Shown here piece by piece: positions 16,156 through 24,964 of a stretch of 64,000 bases of DNA. The first letter of the stretch is position 1. Every line of letters starts with the position of its first letter. The DNA comes from a virus. The notes beneath the pieces are model-generated. The model was not told the origin of the DNA. It did no database searches and saw only the letters and a list, made by a program, of their open reading frames with translations. A program made the translations under genes and the position numbers. Location: positions 1 through 64,000 of IMG/VR virus record IMGVR_UViG_3300022745_000023; one strand, given 5' to 3'.

Positions 16156-17055
16156 ATGAATTTGACGCTGGCCCCTGATGATGAGGTTTCGCTGCTGGAT
16201 CGCGTTCCCGCGTTCCTGTCAGTGTCGGACCTGCTGAAAGCTACTCCGGTGACGGAGGGGGATAACCGCTTCGTGTATTTCGAGGCGTCGAATGAGTCTG
16301 TGGATCAGCAAGGCGAAGTGGTGCTCGCCAAGGCCCTTGCGGAGTCCGCCGCCTATTACCTGCAATTCGGCAACCTCGACATTGACCACTACACCCAGAT
16401 TGGCGCGAAGCTGGGCATTCCCAATTACGAACTGTTCGAGATTGGCCGTCCTATCGATGTTCGCTTGGATCGTGGCTCGACCTTCGTAAAGGCGCAGGTC
16501 TATCGTGGCGAAGGGCCGGCTGCTGAACAGGCCAACGGCTTTTGGTCGTCGGTAACGGACCTCTCGCCGCCTAAGCGCTGGTTCCCGTCTGTGGGTGGCA
16601 AGGTTATCTCCAAGGCCATCACCATTGACCCGGCCACCAAGGCGAAGCGCGCCATTATCGAAAAGGTGCGCTGGTCGAATGTCGGCCTGTCGCGTATGCC
16701 GGTTAATGCGAATTTGGCGACCGTTTCAACGGTCCCGTTCGGCGCCCTGACCAAGTCGCTGTGCGCCGAGGGCTTTGATTTCGCGAAAGCGATGGAGGCC
16801 GGTTACGGCACAGACGCGGCAACGCTGTCAGGTGCGGGCGCGCTGCGCCGGCAGTCGCTTGAGCCGAACCTGCTTTCGTATTGGGATTTTCGGGATGGCC
16901 TCGCGGACCTGATCCGCAAGGGCAAGGTCAGTGGGGGAAAGCCTGCTGAATTGGTAAGGGTCGCTCAAGACCACTTCGGCATGTCTCCCGACATTGCCGC
17001 TGCCTCGGTTGAGCGGTTTTTGAGCGATCTTTCGCAACACAGGAGGAAGCAATGA
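16156..17055 (+). CDS. Prohead protease (HK97/S78-like) with capsid-like C-terminus
   Basis: 299 residues. ESVDQQGEVV near 53 and LDIDH near 78 carry the expected N-terminal pattern and the likely catalytic His; VGLSRMPVNA near 179 carries the likely catalytic Ser, the arrangement of herpesvirus/HK97-type prohead proteases. It would cleave scaffold and capsid precursors during head maturation. From about residue 211 the sequence AMEAGYG...GAGALRRQSLE closely matches the N-terminus of the capsid protein encoded 1 kb downstream. Overlaps the next gene by 4 nt. Confidence 0.75.
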   Translation: MNLTLAPDDEVSLLDRVPAFLSVSDLLKATPVTEGDNRFVYFEASNESVDQQGEVVLAKALAESAAYYLQFGNLDIDHYTQIGAKLGIPNYELFEIGRPIDVRLDRGSTFVKAQVYRGEGPAAEQANGFWSSVTDLSPPKRWFPSVGGKVISKAITIDPATKAKRAIIEKVRWSNVGLSRMPVNANLATVSTVPFGALTKSLCAEGFDFAKAMEAGYGTDAATLSGAGALRRQSLEPNLLSYWDFRDGLADLIRKGKVSGGKPAELVRVAQDHFGMSPDIAAASVERFLSDLSQHRRKQ

Positions 17056-17702
17056 GTTTTGAGAAGCTGCTGGCGGATTTGGATGCCCTGCATGACTTGC
17101 AGAAGTCCGATCCTGCCGCCGATCTGGGCACGGACGGCAATGATGATGACGCTGGCATCGCGGCTGCGGCTGCTGATGGCGATGATGACCGCTCGGGCGA
17201 AGGTGATGGCGAAGGCGACGCCGGTAATGGCGAAGGCGAAGGTGAGGGCGAAGGTGAAGGCGACAAGGGCAGCATGGCCAAGTCGTTTTCGTTCACGCTG
17301 GAAAATGGCGAAGAAATCGACGCCATCGACGGCACCGAACTGGTGAAGTCGCTGATCGACCGCCTCGACGCCAGCGAAAGCCAGACGCAAAAGGCCATGG
17401 GTTCGATGCTCGACCTCATGAAGTCCATGAGCGCCGAAATCAAGGCGCAGCGCAGCGAAATCGCCCGCATCGGCGCTGCTGGTCGCGGTCGCAAGACTGT
17501 CGTCTCGGTGGCCGAGAAGCCCCAAGCGACCACGCTTGCGAAGTCGGAGCCGGCTGGCCTTTCCGGGCAGGAGTTTATGGCCAAGGCTCTTGACGCGCAG
17601 AAGGTCGGCAAGATCACCGGCCTTGATGTGGCGCGCGCCGAGGCCTCGCTTCTCAAGGGCCTTCCCGTCAATCCCAGCATTGTCAGCCGCGTGCTGTCGT
17701 AA
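17052..17702 (+). CDS. Scaffold-like capsid assembly protein
   Basis: 216 residues, very acidic. Residues 25-75 are D/G/E-rich with a GEGEGEGEG run; residues 90-140 are helical (LVKSLIDRLDASES...LDLMKSMSAEIKAQRSEI). Position between protease and capsid genes and this composition fit a scaffold; it could also be a capsid-associated protein. Degradation by the upstream protease is likely (inference). Confidence 0.65.
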   Translation: MSFEKLLADLDALHDLQKSDPAADLGTDGNDDDAGIAAAAADGDDDRSGEGDGEGDAGNGEGEGEGEGEGDKGSMAKSFSFTLENGEEIDAIDGTELVKSLIDRLDASESQTQKAMGSMLDLMKSMSAEIKAQRSEIARIGAAGRGRKTVVSVAEKPQATTLAKSEPAGLSGQEFMAKALDAQKVGKITGLDVARAEASLLKGLPVNPSIVSRVLS

Positions 17703-17737
17703 GCGCATCCACAGCCTCTTTTTGAAGGAAAAAGACC

Positions 17738-19189
17738 ATGTTGAATCCGAATATGTTGCCGAATGCGCTGGGCGGCCAGACCGTGACCGGCGAAATGTCG
17801 ATGGCCGAAGTGGGCGAACTGCAAAAGGCGATGGAGGCCGGCTACGGCTCGGACGTCTCGCAGTTGACCGGCGCGGGCGCGCTTCGCATCCAGTCGCTCG
17901 AAAAGACGATGCTCTCGACCATTCAGGAGAACAAGCACTTTGCTCTGTTCAACGAACTGGCCAAGACCAACGCGACGGCGACCGTCGATGAATGGACCGA
18001 ACAGTCGGGCATCGGTGGCTTCCTCGGTGGCTCGACCAACACCGAAACCGGCACGATCCAGAACGCGCAGGGGCAATACAACCGCCGGGTCGGCATGGTG
18101 AAGTTCCTGATGACTCGCCGTGAAATCAGCTTCGTGGCGACGTTGCAGAATGCCATCGTTGAGGCGGAAGCCGTGGAAGCGCAGAACGGCGCTTTGCAGC
18201 TTCTCACCGATGCCGAGTTCCTGTGCTTCGAGGGCGACTCGACCGTGGTCCCCACCGAATTTGACGGCATTGCCACGCAGATCGAAACGCTGAACGGCGG
18301 TGACCACATCATCGACGCGGGCGGCCTGCCGCTGAACAGCATCGATATGGTGGACCGGGCGGCGGCGCAGATTGCCGGCTTCGGCAACTTCGGTACGCCG
18401 ACGCACATTTTCACCAGCCAGCTTGTCCAGTCGGACTTCAACACCAATCTCGACCCGGCTTTCCGCGTTGCGCTGACCGGCCAGTCGAATGAAGTCGCTC
18501 TGGGCGCTCCGGTGAAGGGTATCAGCACTTCGTGGGGCGATATCAAGAACGTCCCCGATGTGTTCATTCGCGATGAGCGCCAGATGATGCCGTTCGAGGT
18601 CGATTACCCGGCTGTCGCCGCCGCCAATGCCTCCATGGCTCCGGCCAGCGTCACCACGGCGCACGGCTCCGATGCCGCCTCGAAGTTCGCTGCCGGTCAG
18701 GCTGGCAACTACTACTATGCCGTGGCGTCGGTTAGCGCCGCCGGCCAGTCGCCTGTTGTGGTGACCGGGCAGGTGGCCGTGTCGGCTGGCGACAAGGTCA
18801 CGCTGACCATCACCAAGTCGGCTGTGTCGAGTGAAACGGGCTATGCGATCTATCGCGGTCGCCTGAATGGCACCAATGACCTCACTGACCTGCGTTTGGT
18901 CTGCCGTATCCCGCGCAACTTCGGCGGCAACACCACGACCTATGTGGATTACAACCGCAAGATCCCCGGCACGACCAAGGCGTACATCATGAACATGGCG
19001 CCGGGCGCGCAGGCGATCACATGGCGCCAAATGCTCCCGATGACCAAGTTCCCGCTGTACCCGACTGCTTCGGCTGTCGTGCCGTGGGCGCAGCTTCTTT
19101 TCGGCTACCTCCGCATCGGCAAGCGCAAGCACCACGTGGTGATCGAAAATGTCGTCGCGTCAGGTCAAAGCTGGAAGCCCTTCGGGTGA
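17738..19189 (+). CDS. Major capsid protein
   Basis: 483 residues, AAGGAAAAAG before the ATG. The conserved core (TVDEWTEQSGIGGFLGGSTN, FLMTRREISFVATLQNA, LCFEGDSTVVPTEFDG, FGTPTHIFTSQ) identifies a phage major capsid protein, presumably with the HK97 fold. Residues about 305-410 form an inserted Ig/FnIII-like beta domain (YYYAVASVSAAGQSPVVVTG, GYAIYRGRLN), likely displayed on the capsid surface. The N-terminal AMEAGYG motif recurs in the protease. Confidence 0.88.
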   Translation: MLNPNMLPNALGGQTVTGEMSMAEVGELQKAMEAGYGSDVSQLTGAGALRIQSLEKTMLSTIQENKHFALFNELAKTNATATVDEWTEQSGIGGFLGGSTNTETGTIQNAQGQYNRRVGMVKFLMTRREISFVATLQNAIVEAEAVEAQNGALQLLTDAEFLCFEGDSTVVPTEFDGIATQIETLNGGDHIIDAGGLPLNSIDMVDRAAAQIAGFGNFGTPTHIFTSQLVQSDFNTNLDPAFRVALTGQSNEVALGAPVKGISTSWGDIKNVPDVFIRDERQMMPFEVDYPAVAAANASMAPASVTTAHGSDAASKFAAGQAGNYYYAVASVSAAGQSPVVVTGQVAVSAGDKVTLTITKSAVSSETGYAIYRGRLNGTNDLTDLRLVCRIPRNFGGNTTTYVDYNRKIPGTTKAYIMNMAPGAQAITWRQMLPMTKFPLYPTASAVVPWAQLLFGYLRIGKRKHHVVIENVVASGQSWKPFG

Positions 19190-19301: not shown

Positions 19302-20231
19302 ATGAAGCAAGCAAGAAAAAAGTGGACCTTTGAGGAAATCGCTGCTGAGGCGGCGAAGTTCGATTCTAGGGCTGCATTCGCTAGTGAAAGCAACAGGGCC
19401 TACAACGCGGCTTGGAGGCAAGGCATCCTCGACCAAGTGTGCGGTCACATGGAAGTCTCTCCGATCTATTCCCAAAAGCGATGGGATCGAGAGTCCGTCT
19501 TTGCCGAGGCTTTGAAGTTCAATAGCCGTGCTGAGTTCAAGCGCGAGAATAGCGGCGCTTACTGCTTTGCGATCAACAACGGCTTTCTCGATGCCTGTTG
19601 TAAGCACATGAACGAAGGGCAAATCTGGAAAAAGGACCGGATTCTAAAGGTCGCCAAACAATTCCGCAATCCAGCGTCATTTAAAAAATCGTATCCGGGG
19701 GCGTACAAGGCAGCCCGTTTACTTGGCATTCTTGATGAATCCTGCGCCCACATGTCCAAGAAGCGCGAATGGACCAAGGAGGAAGTTCTCAGGACTGCGC
19801 GCGGGTACGACACGATATCAAAGTTCAAAATGGCTGTTAATGGCGCATATAAGCATGCGCTCAACAACGGGTATGCGGATGAGGTATTCGCCCACATGGA
19901 TGGGGGCGAGGGAGGCTTTTCACCAACAAAGCCCGCGCTGCTTTACTCCCTGAAAGTGACGCTTCCTGACGGGGGTAAACTTTTCAAGGTTGGGATCACA
20001 GGTCGTGACACTAGCCTAAGAATTGTCGGGATGGGTGCCTATCCGGGCGTCCGCATCACTATCTTGCGGGAGGTCTGCTTCAATAAGGGCCGTGATGCTA
20101 GGGCGATGGAGAAAGCGATCCACGTGAAGTTCCGAGATAGCAAGTATCGGGGTGAGCCTGTAATGAAGAATGGCAACACTGAACTTTTCACGGAAAACGT
20201 TCTCGATCTTTTCCGCTTAATGGAGGTTTGA
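19302..20231 (+). CDS. GIY-YIG homing endonuclease (T5orf172/MUG113-like) with four DNA-binding repeats
   Basis: 309 residues. Residues 1-190 are four repeats of about 45 residues of the form W-x3-I-x2-A-x3-F-x-S...F...AY-x-AA-x2-G-ILD...HM, the intron-homing DNA-binding repeat type. The C-terminus LLYSLKVTLPDGGKLFKVGITGRD...E-K fits a T5orf172-like GIY-YIG nuclease. Free-standing, inserted between head genes, with lower GC than neighbours; it could drive its own spread by cutting capsid-region DNA. One GTCGTGAC lies by chance inside at 20002. Confidence 0.75.
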   Translation: MKQARKKWTFEEIAAEAAKFDSRAAFASESNRAYNAAWRQGILDQVCGHMEVSPIYSQKRWDRESVFAEALKFNSRAEFKRENSGAYCFAINNGFLDACCKHMNEGQIWKKDRILKVAKQFRNPASFKKSYPGAYKAARLLGILDESCAHMSKKREWTKEEVLRTARGYDTISKFKMAVNGAYKHALNNGYADEVFAHMDGGEGGFSPTKPALLYSLKVTLPDGGKLFKVGITGRDTSLRIVGMGAYPGVRITILREVCFNKGRDARAMEKAIHVKFRDSKYRGEPVMKNGNTELFTENVLDLFRLMEV

Positions 20232-21784: not shown

Positions 21785-24700
21785 ATGTCGATCCGCAATT
21801 TTGCTGCTGCGATCCGCGCTCAGAAAGTCGCCGCTGATGCATCTTCTGCTGCGGCTTCTTCTGCTGCCACTGCCGCTGGTGCTGCCACCGCCGCCACGCA
21901 GGCCAAGAATGATTCACTGACTGCCTCGCAAGCTGCTGCTACCAGTGCCACAAATGCCTCTGCCAGTGCGTCGACGGCAGCAACCAGCGCCACTAGTGCC
22001 AGCGCCAGCGCGGGCAATGCCTCTGCCAGTGCGACCGCAGCAAGCGGCAGCGCAACCAGCGCCGCTAACTCCGCCGCCACTGCCACCACACAGGCGACAA
22101 ACGCATCGTCCAGCGCCACAAACGCCGCTACCAGTGGGACTAATGCGGCTGCCAGCGCGACAACCGCAACCACGCAAGCAACTAGCGCGGCGACTAGCGC
22201 AACCAACGCAGCGACCAGCGCTACCACTGCCACCACGCAAGCGACCAACGCCGCCACCAGTGCCACAAATGCCGCAACCAGCGCCGCACAGGCCCTGCAA
22301 GCAGCCACGCAGTCGCAGGGCTTTGCCAACACGCTCAACACCAACCCGACTGTTCTGCCGTTTGAAGTGACCGCGATCAGCGGCGGCGTCGGCACTGGCA
22401 CTGGCGGCACGGACGGTACTTATAACCTTGGCGTCACGGGTGGTCCTGCGGGATTTCAGGCCACGGTTATGATCAGTGGCGGCAAGATCGCTTCCTACGC
22501 CATCATCAATCCCGGCATTTCGGCCAGCAACACTGCGCCTACGCTTTCGCTTTCGGGCGTGACGGGCCTGACCGGTGCGACCACGCCGACCGCAACCGTG
22601 GGCACGATCCCGGTCAACCGCGTATTCACCGCGCCCGATGCGACCGGCACCTATGAACTGGCATGGATCAACAACGCCGGATCGCTTTCGCAGTTTCCGA
22701 CGACCGGGACGCAATTCCAGAAGTATTACAAAGCTTCAATTGACGCGCTTTTTTCCAATCTGAACAGCACGGAAACGATTGGGCGTTCTGTCAACCCGAT
22801 TTCCGGTTTTTCAACGACGACTGGCACTTATGCTTTTGCCAATGCCATCGCGCTAAACGGCACGATCACGGCCATCCGTGTTTACGGCTTTGGTTCGGGC
22901 ACGATTAAGGTGCGCCGCTTCACACTTTCCGGCACGACGATGACGCAAGTCGGCAGCGACACGAATGTAGCGATTTCTGTCGGGCTGAACACGTATTCTG
23001 TCAACATCGCGGTCAATGCTGGGGAGTATATCGGCTTTTATACCCCTGCAAGCTGCATTGGGTATACCAGTACCACCGGAGACAGCGGCGGATATTATTT
23101 CAGTTCCTCCGACAGCACAAGCTACAATGATACGTCTGGTCCGCGCACTGCGGCTCGGCTTGAAATCGGGTTTGACCTGACTGAACCCTACGTCACAAAA
23201 ACCCGCATTCAGGGCATTGAGAGCAATGTCACCACAGCTCAAGCAGGCGCAACCAGTGCTAACGCAGGGCTTGGCGATCTAGGCAATGCGTCTTCGATCA
23301 CGGTCGAAGACCACGCAGCGACGACGCAGTTTGCTAGCACCGCATTTGGGGGCTGGTCTGGCGCGGTGCTGCTTTCAAGCGCGGCGGTCGGAACGGTTAT
23401 CAAGCGAATTGGGTTTGACAACTTTTACGTTGATGCAACTGCCACCAAGGTCAATCTGAAAATTTACTTGCGGCCTGATGCGGAAACAAACGCACCGCCA
23501 ACCAACTGCACGCTCGTGTTCAGTCAAGATTACGCGTTGGCCGCGCTCGGGCTAACTGCCGGGTCAACAAACCGCCAAACGATCCTTTGCCAGTTTCCGT
23601 CTAATTTCACCAAAACGGCAGGCTATCACCTAGCGTTTGAGTTGCAAGCGCAGAACGGAAGTAGCGCCAAGGTTGCCTCGTCGATTGGTTATCTGTCAGA
23701 TACCACTTCCACAGCTTCAGAACGTGGTTGGTATTACGGCACGACCAGTACCAGCACTTACACGGCAATTGCATCGCCTAACCGAATTGCGGTTCGCGTT
23801 GCTCGCGATGGTTACGTGCCGTTCAATAAAACGGACCTTCTCGCTTCGGCCAGTTCAACTGTAACGGTTTCGGGCAATCAGGTCACGGTATCCGGCACGC
23901 TTCGCAAGAACGGTGTGGATTACCCCTATTCTGGCACGACAACGCTAACACTCGCCGCTTCTGGCACTGAGCGCATGGACAAGCTGGTTTTGGCACGGTC
24001 CACGCTGGCCCTCAGCGCGGTTGCCGGCAGTCAGCGCACGGCGCAATTGGACTCGCTTGAATGGCAGGGCGCAACCCCGGCTGATAGCATTGTTGTCGCT
24101 CGCGCAAGGGTGGGCAATACGAATGTCCAAGCCGCAAGCTGCGCCAACTTCCGGGGTCTGATCAAGGTCGGAACCGAGGGCGAAATGGCCATGCAGATCG
24201 ACCGCAACAGGCGTATCCTGCGCGGTCTGATCGGTAAGGCAACGCGCGGGGGAACAATCAAGCTGGGCGGATACGGCGACAGTATCACTGCAATCCAATC
24301 GTCAACCCCGCCCTATACCGCGAACGGCACCATGCGGGATCGCGGCCTGACGTTCTTGGCAAATTATCCTGCCGACACTCAGGCTTTGCTCACGCTGTAC
24401 GACACCGGAGACGGTGCTGGCGCGGTTCACACCCGGCTTGGCTGGAACTGGATCATCAAGTCCGCGCTTGAAAAGCTAGGTGGCACGGTCACGTACAACA
24501 ACTATGGCATCGGCGGGACGACCAGCCAAAATACGACAGACAACGGTTTGTATGCGTCTCGGATTGCGGTTCCGCTGGCTGATGCGCTCGATGTGGTAGT
24601 GATCGCATTTGGCATGAATGAACGGGGCCAGTCCTACACTTACGCAAACATCGTCAACATGATTGGCCAGTTTCAGGCGGTGGGCACGGCCTGCATTGTC

Positions 24701-24964
24701 ATGGGATGCACGAGGCCCAACGCCAACCAGTCGGTGTCAGCTTGGCGCTACACCAATGATGCGCTTGAAACTGCGGCGATGGATGCTGGCGCGGCATACG
24801 TTTCGACTGTGGCCATTTCCGACGACCGTAATCTCGGTGGGATCGGTGTGCCCGCCGAAGCTCTTGCCTCTGCCAATACGATCAGCGGCGGCAACAACCA
24901 CCCCGGCATCTATGAACTAACCCAATACGGCAACTCTGCTGTGATCCAGTTGGGCTTGGTCTGA
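21785..24964 (+). CDS. Fibre protein with SGNH/GDSL esterase domain
   Basis: 1059 residues. Residues about 15-180 are A/T/S/N repeats (ATSATNAATSATTATTQA type) giving a trimeric fibre stalk; the middle is beta-rich. The C-terminus carries SGNH blocks: YGDSIT near 825, NYGIGG near 910, FGMNE near 943, and NNHPG near 1038 (catalytic His). It probably removes ester groups such as acetyl from host surface polysaccharide. Its place among head genes, 19 kb before the tail-fibre cluster, suggests a capsid- or collar-attached fibre (inference). Confidence 0.8.
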   Translation: MSIRNFAAAIRAQKVAADASSAAASSAATAAGAATAATQAKNDSLTASQAAATSATNASASASTAATSATSASASAGNASASATAASGSATSAANSAATATTQATNASSSATNAATSGTNAAASATTATTQATSAATSATNAATSATTATTQATNAATSATNAATSAAQALQAATQSQGFANTLNTNPTVLPFEVTAISGGVGTGTGGTDGTYNLGVTGGPAGFQATVMISGGKIASYAIINPGISASNTAPTLSLSGVTGLTGATTPTATVGTIPVNRVFTAPDATGTYELAWINNAGSLSQFPTTGTQFQKYYKASIDALFSNLNSTETIGRSVNPISGFSTTTGTYAFANAIALNGTITAIRVYGFGSGTIKVRRFTLSGTTMTQVGSDTNVAISVGLNTYSVNIAVNAGEYIGFYTPASCIGYTSTTGDSGGYYFSSSDSTSYNDTSGPRTAARLEIGFDLTEPYVTKTRIQGIESNVTTAQAGATSANAGLGDLGNASSITVEDHAATTQFASTAFGGWSGAVLLSSAAVGTVIKRIGFDNFYVDATATKVNLKIYLRPDAETNAPPTNCTLVFSQDYALAALGLTAGSTNRQTILCQFPSNFTKTAGYHLAFELQAQNGSSAKVASSIGYLSDTTSTASERGWYYGTTSTSTYTAIASPNRIAVRVARDGYVPFNKTDLLASASSTVTVSGNQVTVSGTLRKNGVDYPYSGTTTLTLAASGTERMDKLVLARSTLALSAVAGSQRTAQLDSLEWQGATPADSIVVARARVGNTNVQAASCANFRGLIKVGTEGEMAMQIDRNRRILRGLIGKATRGGTIKLGGYGDSITAIQSSTPPYTANGTMRDRGLTFLANYPADTQALLTLYDTGDGAGAVHTRLGWNWIIKSALEKLGGTVTYNNYGIGGTTSQNTTDNGLYASRIAVPLADALDVVVIAFGMNERGQSYTYANIVNMIGQFQAVGTACIVMGCTRPNANQSVSAWRYTNDALETAAMDAGAAYVSTVAISDDRNLGGIGVPAEALASANTISGGNNHPGIYELTQYGNSAVIQLGLV

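What the first reader, a model, noticed from the sequence alone, without database searches (positions are those of the whole stretch)
16784..17900. Capsid N-terminal motif duplicated in the prohead protease
Protease residues about 211-235 and capsid residues about 30-54 match at about 19 of 25 positions (AMEAGYG, GAGALR, QSLE), and GCGATGGAGGCCGG is identical in DNA. The shared segment could be a docking or cleavage signal that brings protease into the prohead, or a trace of a duplication.
Basis: partly seen in the sequence, partly recalled or inferred. Interest (0 to 1): 0.65.

Follow-up and report, generated by a model that had tools for sequence, protein, structure and literature searches.

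The report
Protease carries capsid's N-terminal tag
In SPO1-like phages and their Gram-negative-infecting relatives, the enzyme that trims the virus shell carries a copy, evolving in step with the shell protein, of the stretch with which the mature shell protein begins, probably so that the enzyme is built into the growing shell next to its targets and can then cut itself loose.

Summary
Protease residues 211-235 match capsid (MCP) residues 30-54 at 19 of 25 positions. The genome holds exactly these two copies (E 1.6e-22 and 5e-10). Among 119 non-redundant relatives with both genes, 116 share such a segment; about 590 Herelleviridae-type phage records hold two copies each. The pair co-evolves: a protease's segment matches its own MCP equally well at every divergence (score about 91), but another phage's MCP only in proportion to relatedness (down to 43). 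A sister-swap test gives 40:10, p=3e-5. Codons show no gene conversion beyond background, so selection on the protein maintains the match. Both copies begin right after an almost invariant Lys. PDB chains of phage 812 MCP begin exactly there (K24|S25), so that Lys is the maturation site and the motif is the N-terminus of the mature MCP. The K|S dipeptide is enriched 3.5-fold in the scaffold and depleted in the MCP body, giving an inferred specificity [LMV]xK|[SA]. In the protease the copy is its best conserved but predicted-disordered stretch, a linker between catalytic and C-terminal domains. Best reading: an MCP N-arm mimic with its own autocleavage site that docks the protease in the prohead. 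Docking and self-cleavage are inferred.

The parts
16156..17055 (+). Prohead (head maturation) protease gene, 299 aa; T4 gp21 / herpesvirus assemblin-like catalytic fold plus a C-terminal extension
   Evidence: phrog_1028 E 5.6e-33; AF2 model matches T4 gp21 5jbl, E 2e-4
16237..16242 (+). Conserved K28|A29 at the N-terminal edge of the protease domain, predicted processing site
   Evidence: K in 96% and A in 80% of 85 relatives; edge of the ordered domain
16753..16758 (+). Invariant K200|S201 at the C-terminal edge of the protease domain, predicted autocleavage site
   Evidence: K in 100%, S in 80% of 85 relatives; sits in a disordered segment
16786..16863 (+). Capsid-like motif in the protease, K211|A212 to E236 (similarity runs on to S241, 16878)
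   Evidence: best conserved part of the protease (0.71 against 0.57 for the catalytic domain) yet low pLDDT
16879..17052 (+). C-terminal helical domain of the protease, aa 242-299
   Evidence: AF2 pLDDT about 94, three helices; follows the motif in relatives
17052..17702 (+). Probable scaffolding protein, 216 aa, with eight K|[SA] dipeptides
   Evidence: position between protease and MCP in relatives; K|S enriched 3.5-fold, z 40, over 113 such proteins; sites listed; named by position, no convincing profile match
17738..19189 (+). Major capsid protein gene, 483 aa, SPO1-type
   Evidence: phrog_752 E 7.5e-85; SPO1 capsid 9vel is the best fold match, E 5e-31
17738..17827 (+). MCP propeptide, residues 1-30, predicted to be removed by cleavage at K30|A31
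   Evidence: aligns with K24|S25 of phage 812, where PDB chains 9row, 9rox and 9roz begin
17825..17902 (+). MCP copy of the motif, K30|A31 to E55 (similarity runs on to S60, 17917): the N-arm of the mature MCP

Best explanation
The shared segment is the N-arm with which the mature capsid protein begins, together with the lysine that precedes the cut. Shown: it is in both genes of nearly all relatives, it co-evolves within each phage, and it starts at K|[AS], which is the MCP maturation site in phage 812. Inferred: the protease cleaves after K in [LMV]xK|[SA] sites. These sites stud the scaffold, precede the MCP N-arm, and bound the protease's own catalytic domain (K28, K200, K211). Inferred: before cleavage the disordered capsid-like linker, with the helical C-terminal domain, docks the protease onto the partner that holds the MCP N-arm in the prohead, either the scaffold or a neighbouring MCP. 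That partner site must fit both copies, so they have to change together. After assembly the protease frees its core (about aa 29-200) from its docked tail, trims the MCP propeptide and shreds the scaffold.
For: The segment is in the protease and MCP of 116 of 119 non-redundant phages (z > 5), with two places per genome in about 590 phage records. Own pair mean score is 91.4 against 66.3 for others; the highest of 10,000 permutations is 71.5. The own score stays flat while the cross score falls to 42.7 with divergence; sister-swap 40:10, p=3e-5. Codon sharing is no higher than control, so the match is kept at protein level. Lys precedes the motif in 107 and 109 of 111 phages. Phage 812 mature chains begin at S25, right after the Lys. 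The largest modelled SPO1 chain has 445 residues, which equals 468 minus 23, as K23|A24 predicts. K|S is enriched in scaffolds, z 40, and depleted in the MCP body. The motif is the best conserved part of the protease but has low pLDDT there and in the MCP monomer, as for a segment that orders on a partner. In 80alpha, P22 and phi29, scaffold ends contact the MCP N-arm helix (PMC12749128). A prohead protease with an autocleaved 64-residue C-terminal propeptide is documented in SPN3US (PMC10052503).
Against: No binding partner, no protease processing and no prohead location has been shown for any of these phages here. Three of 119 phages have no recognisable copy in the protease: L078 (also L224), L177 and the Leptospira phage L262. 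L078 keeps a K|S site and the C-terminal domain while its MCP keeps the motif, so the copy is not indispensable. The protease copy lacks hydrophobic residues that are standard in the MCP copy (I/V before Q/E-S-L, M/L later), so it would make only part of the MCP arm's contacts. Extended substrate recognition would explain much of the same pattern. Similarity between the protease C-terminal domain and the scaffold C-terminus, which would have pointed to shared capsid binding, was tested and not supported.
Confidence: 0.5

Rival explanations
1. Extended substrate recognition: the protease reads about 25 residues downstream of the scissile bond through an exosite. MCP and protease share the segment because both must be cut efficiently or in a set order by the same enzyme; no docking role.
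For: Lys at P1 and a mostly hydrophobic P3 in both copies; co-evolution within phages would follow if the exosite drifts; the MCP and the protease itself must both be cut.
Against: The scaffold's many K|[SA] sites have the local consensus but not the downstream motif, and motif profiles find no third copy. L078 keeps the K|S without the motif. Known prohead proteases read about P4-P1' (SPN3US: A-x-E with preferences at P4 and P1', PMC10052503).
Confidence: 0.27
2. Cis pseudosubstrate: the protease's copy occupies its own active site or exosite and keeps it a zymogen until MCP N-arms in the prohead compete it off.
For: The copy follows the catalytic domain through a short flexible linker and mimics the true product end of the MCP.
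Against: AF2 shows no confident contact between motif and catalytic domain (low pLDDT). Competition would not demand 25 matching residues on the primed side only.
Confidence: 0.1
3. Duplication relic or recurrent gene conversion between two neighbouring genes, without function.
For: Genes lie about 0.7 kb apart. Codon identity at shared residues slightly exceeds expectation from gene-wide usage, 1057 against 910. A few phages, such as L245, have long identical DNA runs.
Against: In sister pairs the own-against-swapped codon advantage (0.047) equals that of unrelated positions in the same genes (0.046). The segment is the most conserved part of the protease, and the two copies differ consistently at a few positions.
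Confidence: 0.06
4. Chance or low-complexity resemblance.
For: The segment is rich in Ala and Gly.
Against: z 18.5 against shuffles, 116 of 119 phages, co-evolution.
Confidence: 0.005

Closest known systems
SPN3US / phiKZ-type prohead protease gp245 with autocleaved C-terminal propeptide (PMC10052503)
   Same: Prohead protease with a C-terminal extension beyond a site that matches its own consensus; here 88 residues after K211, there 64.
   Different: Specificity there is A-x-E|, here inferred [LMV]xK|[SA]. In what was read of that paper no capsid N-arm copy is described.
HK97 / D3 protease and MCP (cleavage K103/S104 in HK97, PMC10275583; D3 in PMC12749128)
   Same: Maturation cut between Lys and Ser; protease next to the MCP gene; protease packaged in the prohead (about 60 copies in HK97, about 90 in D3).
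   Different: There the scaffold is the delta-domain fused to the MCP; here a separate K|S-rich protein. A protease copy of the MCP arm was not looked for in HK97.
Herpesvirus assemblin pUL26 (protease fused to scaffold; from general knowledge)
   Same: Same fold class (pseudorabies virus pUL26N, E 4e-3); protease fused to a segment that brings it to the capsid protein and is then cut off.
   Different: Herpesviruses borrow the scaffold's capsid-binding tail; here the protease borrows the capsid's own N-arm. A scaffold-like tail was tested and not supported.
T4 gp21 prohead protease
   Same: Nearest solved fold (5jbl, E 2e-4).
   Different: T4 cleaves after Glu in (I/L)xE (from memory); 13-14% identity in the fold alignment.
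SPO1 / Herelleviridae head module (gp3.2 protease, gp3.3 scaffold, gp6.1 MCP)
   Same: Same gene order, same motif in protease and MCP, two copies per genome.
   Different: The window phage is a 90-kb relative; its MCP is only about 25-30% identical to theirs. In the papers found here no mention of the shared motif was seen.

Membership tests
Head maturation protease of the phrog_1028 kind (assemblin / gp21 fold) | Family profile match | tested here: met
   E 5.6e-33, residues 15-298
Head maturation protease of the phrog_1028 kind (assemblin / gp21 fold) | Catalytic fold | tested here: met
   T4 gp21 5jbl E 2e-4, then herpesvirus proteases; TM-scores modest because of tail and linker
Head maturation protease of the phrog_1028 kind (assemblin / gp21 fold) | Catalytic His and Ser conserved | tested here: inconclusive
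   H78 and S145 invariant; roles assigned by analogy only
Head maturation protease of the phrog_1028 kind (assemblin / gp21 fold) | Gene beside scaffold and MCP | tested here: met
   protease, small protein, MCP in window and relatives
SPO1-type major capsid protein (phrog_752) | Family profile and fold | tested here: met
   E 7.5e-85; 9vel SPO1 capsid E 5e-31
Herelleviridae | Large Gram-positive-infecting myoviruses, closely related core genes | tested here: not met
   90-kb record; closest named relatives are phages of Gram-negatives, e.g. Bordetella PHB04, Touem01, ST4; only distant MCP identity to Herelleviridae
Prohead protease with autocleaved C-terminal propeptide (SPN3US gp245 type) | C-terminal extension after a site of its own consensus | tested here: met
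   K200|S and K211|A near-invariant, 88 residues follow K211
Prohead protease with autocleaved C-terminal propeptide (SPN3US gp245 type) | Autocleavage observed | not testable with these tools
   needs mass spectrometry with a protease other than trypsin
Lys|Ser-cleaving prohead protease (as in HK97) | MCP cut between Lys and Ser/Ala | tested here: inconclusive
   shown only for a relative: phage 812 mature chains start at S25 after K24; SPO1 inferred from modelled length; the site is conserved but the cut is not shown for the window phage

The most novel reading that the evidence does not exclude
Recruitment by capsid mimicry: in a clade spanning SPO1-like and many Gram-negative phages, the maturation protease enters the prohead by displaying a co-evolving copy of the mature capsid N-arm behind a built-in K|[AS] release site, so one peptide serves as both docking tag and self-destruct joint.
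Probability: 0.42. Interest if true: 0.72.

Novelty: new variant of a known kind. Interest (0 to 1): 0.57.

Why it matters
How a few dozen protease molecules are sorted into a prohead among hundreds of capsid subunits is unclear for most phages. If the reading holds, a short portable peptide does it in the group that holds phages K, 812, A511 and SPO1, some used in therapy and food safety. It gives one deletion to make, a cleavage rule, [LMV]xK|[SA], to test, and a possible tag for loading foreign proteins into phage heads. The rule may also explain why such sites go unnoticed: trypsin cuts after Lys as well, so standard proteomics cannot tell a phage cut from a tryptic one.

Tried and rejected
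Homology between the protease C-terminal domain and the scaffold C-terminus: suggested by eye, rejected by profile-profile comparison (prob under 1%, E 0.2). Gene conversion: a first codon count showed an excess, but the sister-swap count and its control on unrelated positions were equal. Frameshift as the reason for the missing motif in L078: no other frame holds it and L224 agrees. A third copy elsewhere: none in the genome or in flanking genes. Global alignments of all relatives as search queries failed for want of conserved blocks; narrower ones worked. Literature: searches on Herelleviridae head processing found no description of the shared motif, but the library holds open-licence papers only, and the A511 capsid work and the HK97 protease-domain paper were not available. 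A parsimony count of coincident changes per site has no null model and is not used as evidence.

Full report
What is there. The window holds a head-gene block: a 299-aa protease (16156-17055), a 216-aa acidic protein overlapping its stop codon (17052-17702) and a 483-aa major capsid protein, MCP (17738-19189). Profiles identify the protease (phrog_1028, E 5.6e-33) and the MCP (phrog_752, E 7.5e-85); the protein between has only weak matches and is called scaffold by its place. The genome, an 89,634-base virus record, has these two places and no third.

How far it extends. Protein searches of phage records gave relatives in phages of Bordetella, Aeromonas, Pseudomonas, Yersinia, Enterobacter, Morganella and Thermus and in Herelleviridae. 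IMG/VR scans added about 240 loci. Protease and MCP genes were identified with profiles that leave the motif out. In 119 pairs non-redundant at 85% MCP identity, the protease tail aligned with its own MCP N-terminus with z above 5 in 116; the exceptions are L078, L177 and Leptospira phage L262. A 35-aa query finds 1145 places in 587 phage records, that is two per record, in MCP and protease; a second query gives the same picture in the Gram-negative group.

The copies keep pace. After a single old duplication with independent drift, a protease copy should be no closer to its own MCP copy than to other MCP copies. It is closer: mean score 91.4 own against 66.3 others, highest of 10,000 label permutations 71.5. 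The own score is about 90-95 at every divergence, while the cross score falls from 92 between close relatives to 43 between phages with less than 25% MCP identity. Swapping partners between sister phages lowers the match in 40 pairs, raises it in 10 and leaves 8 unchanged (p=3e-5). Thermus phage Cumys shows it plainly: TAGDPHALDPKSGLTGVPAIRRESLE in the protease and TAGDPHALDFKAGLSGVPAIRLESLE in the MCP, unlike all others. Identical residues use identical codons 836 times own and 755 swapped out of 1718, an advantage of 0.047; unrelated positions of the same genes give 0.046. So the likeness is held at the protein level. Single cases such as L245 may have had a recent conversion.

Where the cut lies. 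The motif begins after a lysine that is kept in 107 of 111 proteases and 109 of 111 MCPs. In PDB entries 9row, 9rox and 9roz, the phage 812 MCP chain begins at residue 25 of the 463-aa product, S25, directly after that lysine, K24. The largest chain in the SPO1 capsid 9vel has 445 residues in the fold library, which is the 468-aa product less 23, as a cut at K23|A24 would give; that is an inference from a number. The motif is therefore the beginning of the mature MCP. In 113 scaffold-position proteins, K followed by S occurs 719 times where shuffling gives 206, with L, M or V favoured two places before and L, F or M after; in the MCP body it is rarer than expected, 74 against 124. I infer the protease rule [LMV]xK|[SA]. 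Conserved K28|A29 and K200|S201 flank the catalytic domain, so a mature core of about aa 29-200 is likely. HK97 also cuts between Lys and Ser, K103/S104 (PMC10275583).

Structure. The AF2 model of the protease is confident for the catalytic domain (aa about 30-190) and for a helical C-terminal domain (241-299), and low in between, motif included. The catalytic domain matches T4 gp21 and herpesvirus proteases. In the MCP monomer model the motif is also low-confidence. Yet the motif is the best conserved part of the protease, mean frequency of the commonest residue 0.71 against 0.57 for the catalytic domain. A conserved but unfolded segment usually binds something.

Mechanism. Two needs could keep the pair alike: one partner that must hold both, or one enzyme that must read both. 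The scaffold sites do without the downstream residues, and no third copy exists, which makes pure substrate reading less likely. In 80alpha, P22 and phi29 the scaffold touches the MCP N-arm helix (PMC12749128). I therefore think that the protease shows a capsid-like arm to the scaffold or to neighbouring MCP, is built in, and then cuts itself off. The helical domain beyond may add to binding; its likeness to the scaffold tail was not confirmed. Steps shown: shared motif, co-evolution, MCP cut site in phage 812. Steps inferred: specificity, self-cleavage, docking.

Known and new. Proheads that need a protease with a removable tail are known; SPN3US gp245 loses 64 C-terminal residues by autocleavage (PMC10052503). 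A capsid N-arm copy in that tail was not found described in the papers searched, but the library is partial. I rate it a new variant of a known kind.

Noticed in passing
window 19302-20231 (+): A 309-aa gene directly after the MCP has a T5orf172 domain (Pfam E 1.7e-4, above its cut-off) and several internal repeats of about 45 aa; a possible GIY-YIG-type nuclease sitting in the head gene block.
   Followed up: partly
L245:2182-3057 and L245:3790-5292: Protease copy has the SNYQTD form otherwise seen in MCP copies of its group, with a long nearly identical DNA run; a candidate for a recent MCP-to-protease conversion.
   Followed up: partly
L078:2610-3524 (same in L224): Protease keeps a K|S site and the C-terminal domain but the capsid-like segment is replaced by an unrelated linker, while the MCP keeps it: a natural motif-less variant.
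   Followed up: partly
L008:4489-5409 (Thermus phage Lalka27b): Protease copy is strongly decayed, keeping the K|A site and a PEDLE remnant, while Thermus phage Cumys keeps a near-perfect copy.
   Followed up: no
L263 (Lactobacillus phage LfeInf): Gene order is inverted, MCP before protease, and the motif was found once per genome.
   Followed up: no
window 21785-24964 (+): 1059-aa protein with a long Ala/Ser/Thr-rich repeat start and a GDSI stretch like an SGNH hydrolase near its end, perhaps a fibre.
   Followed up: no
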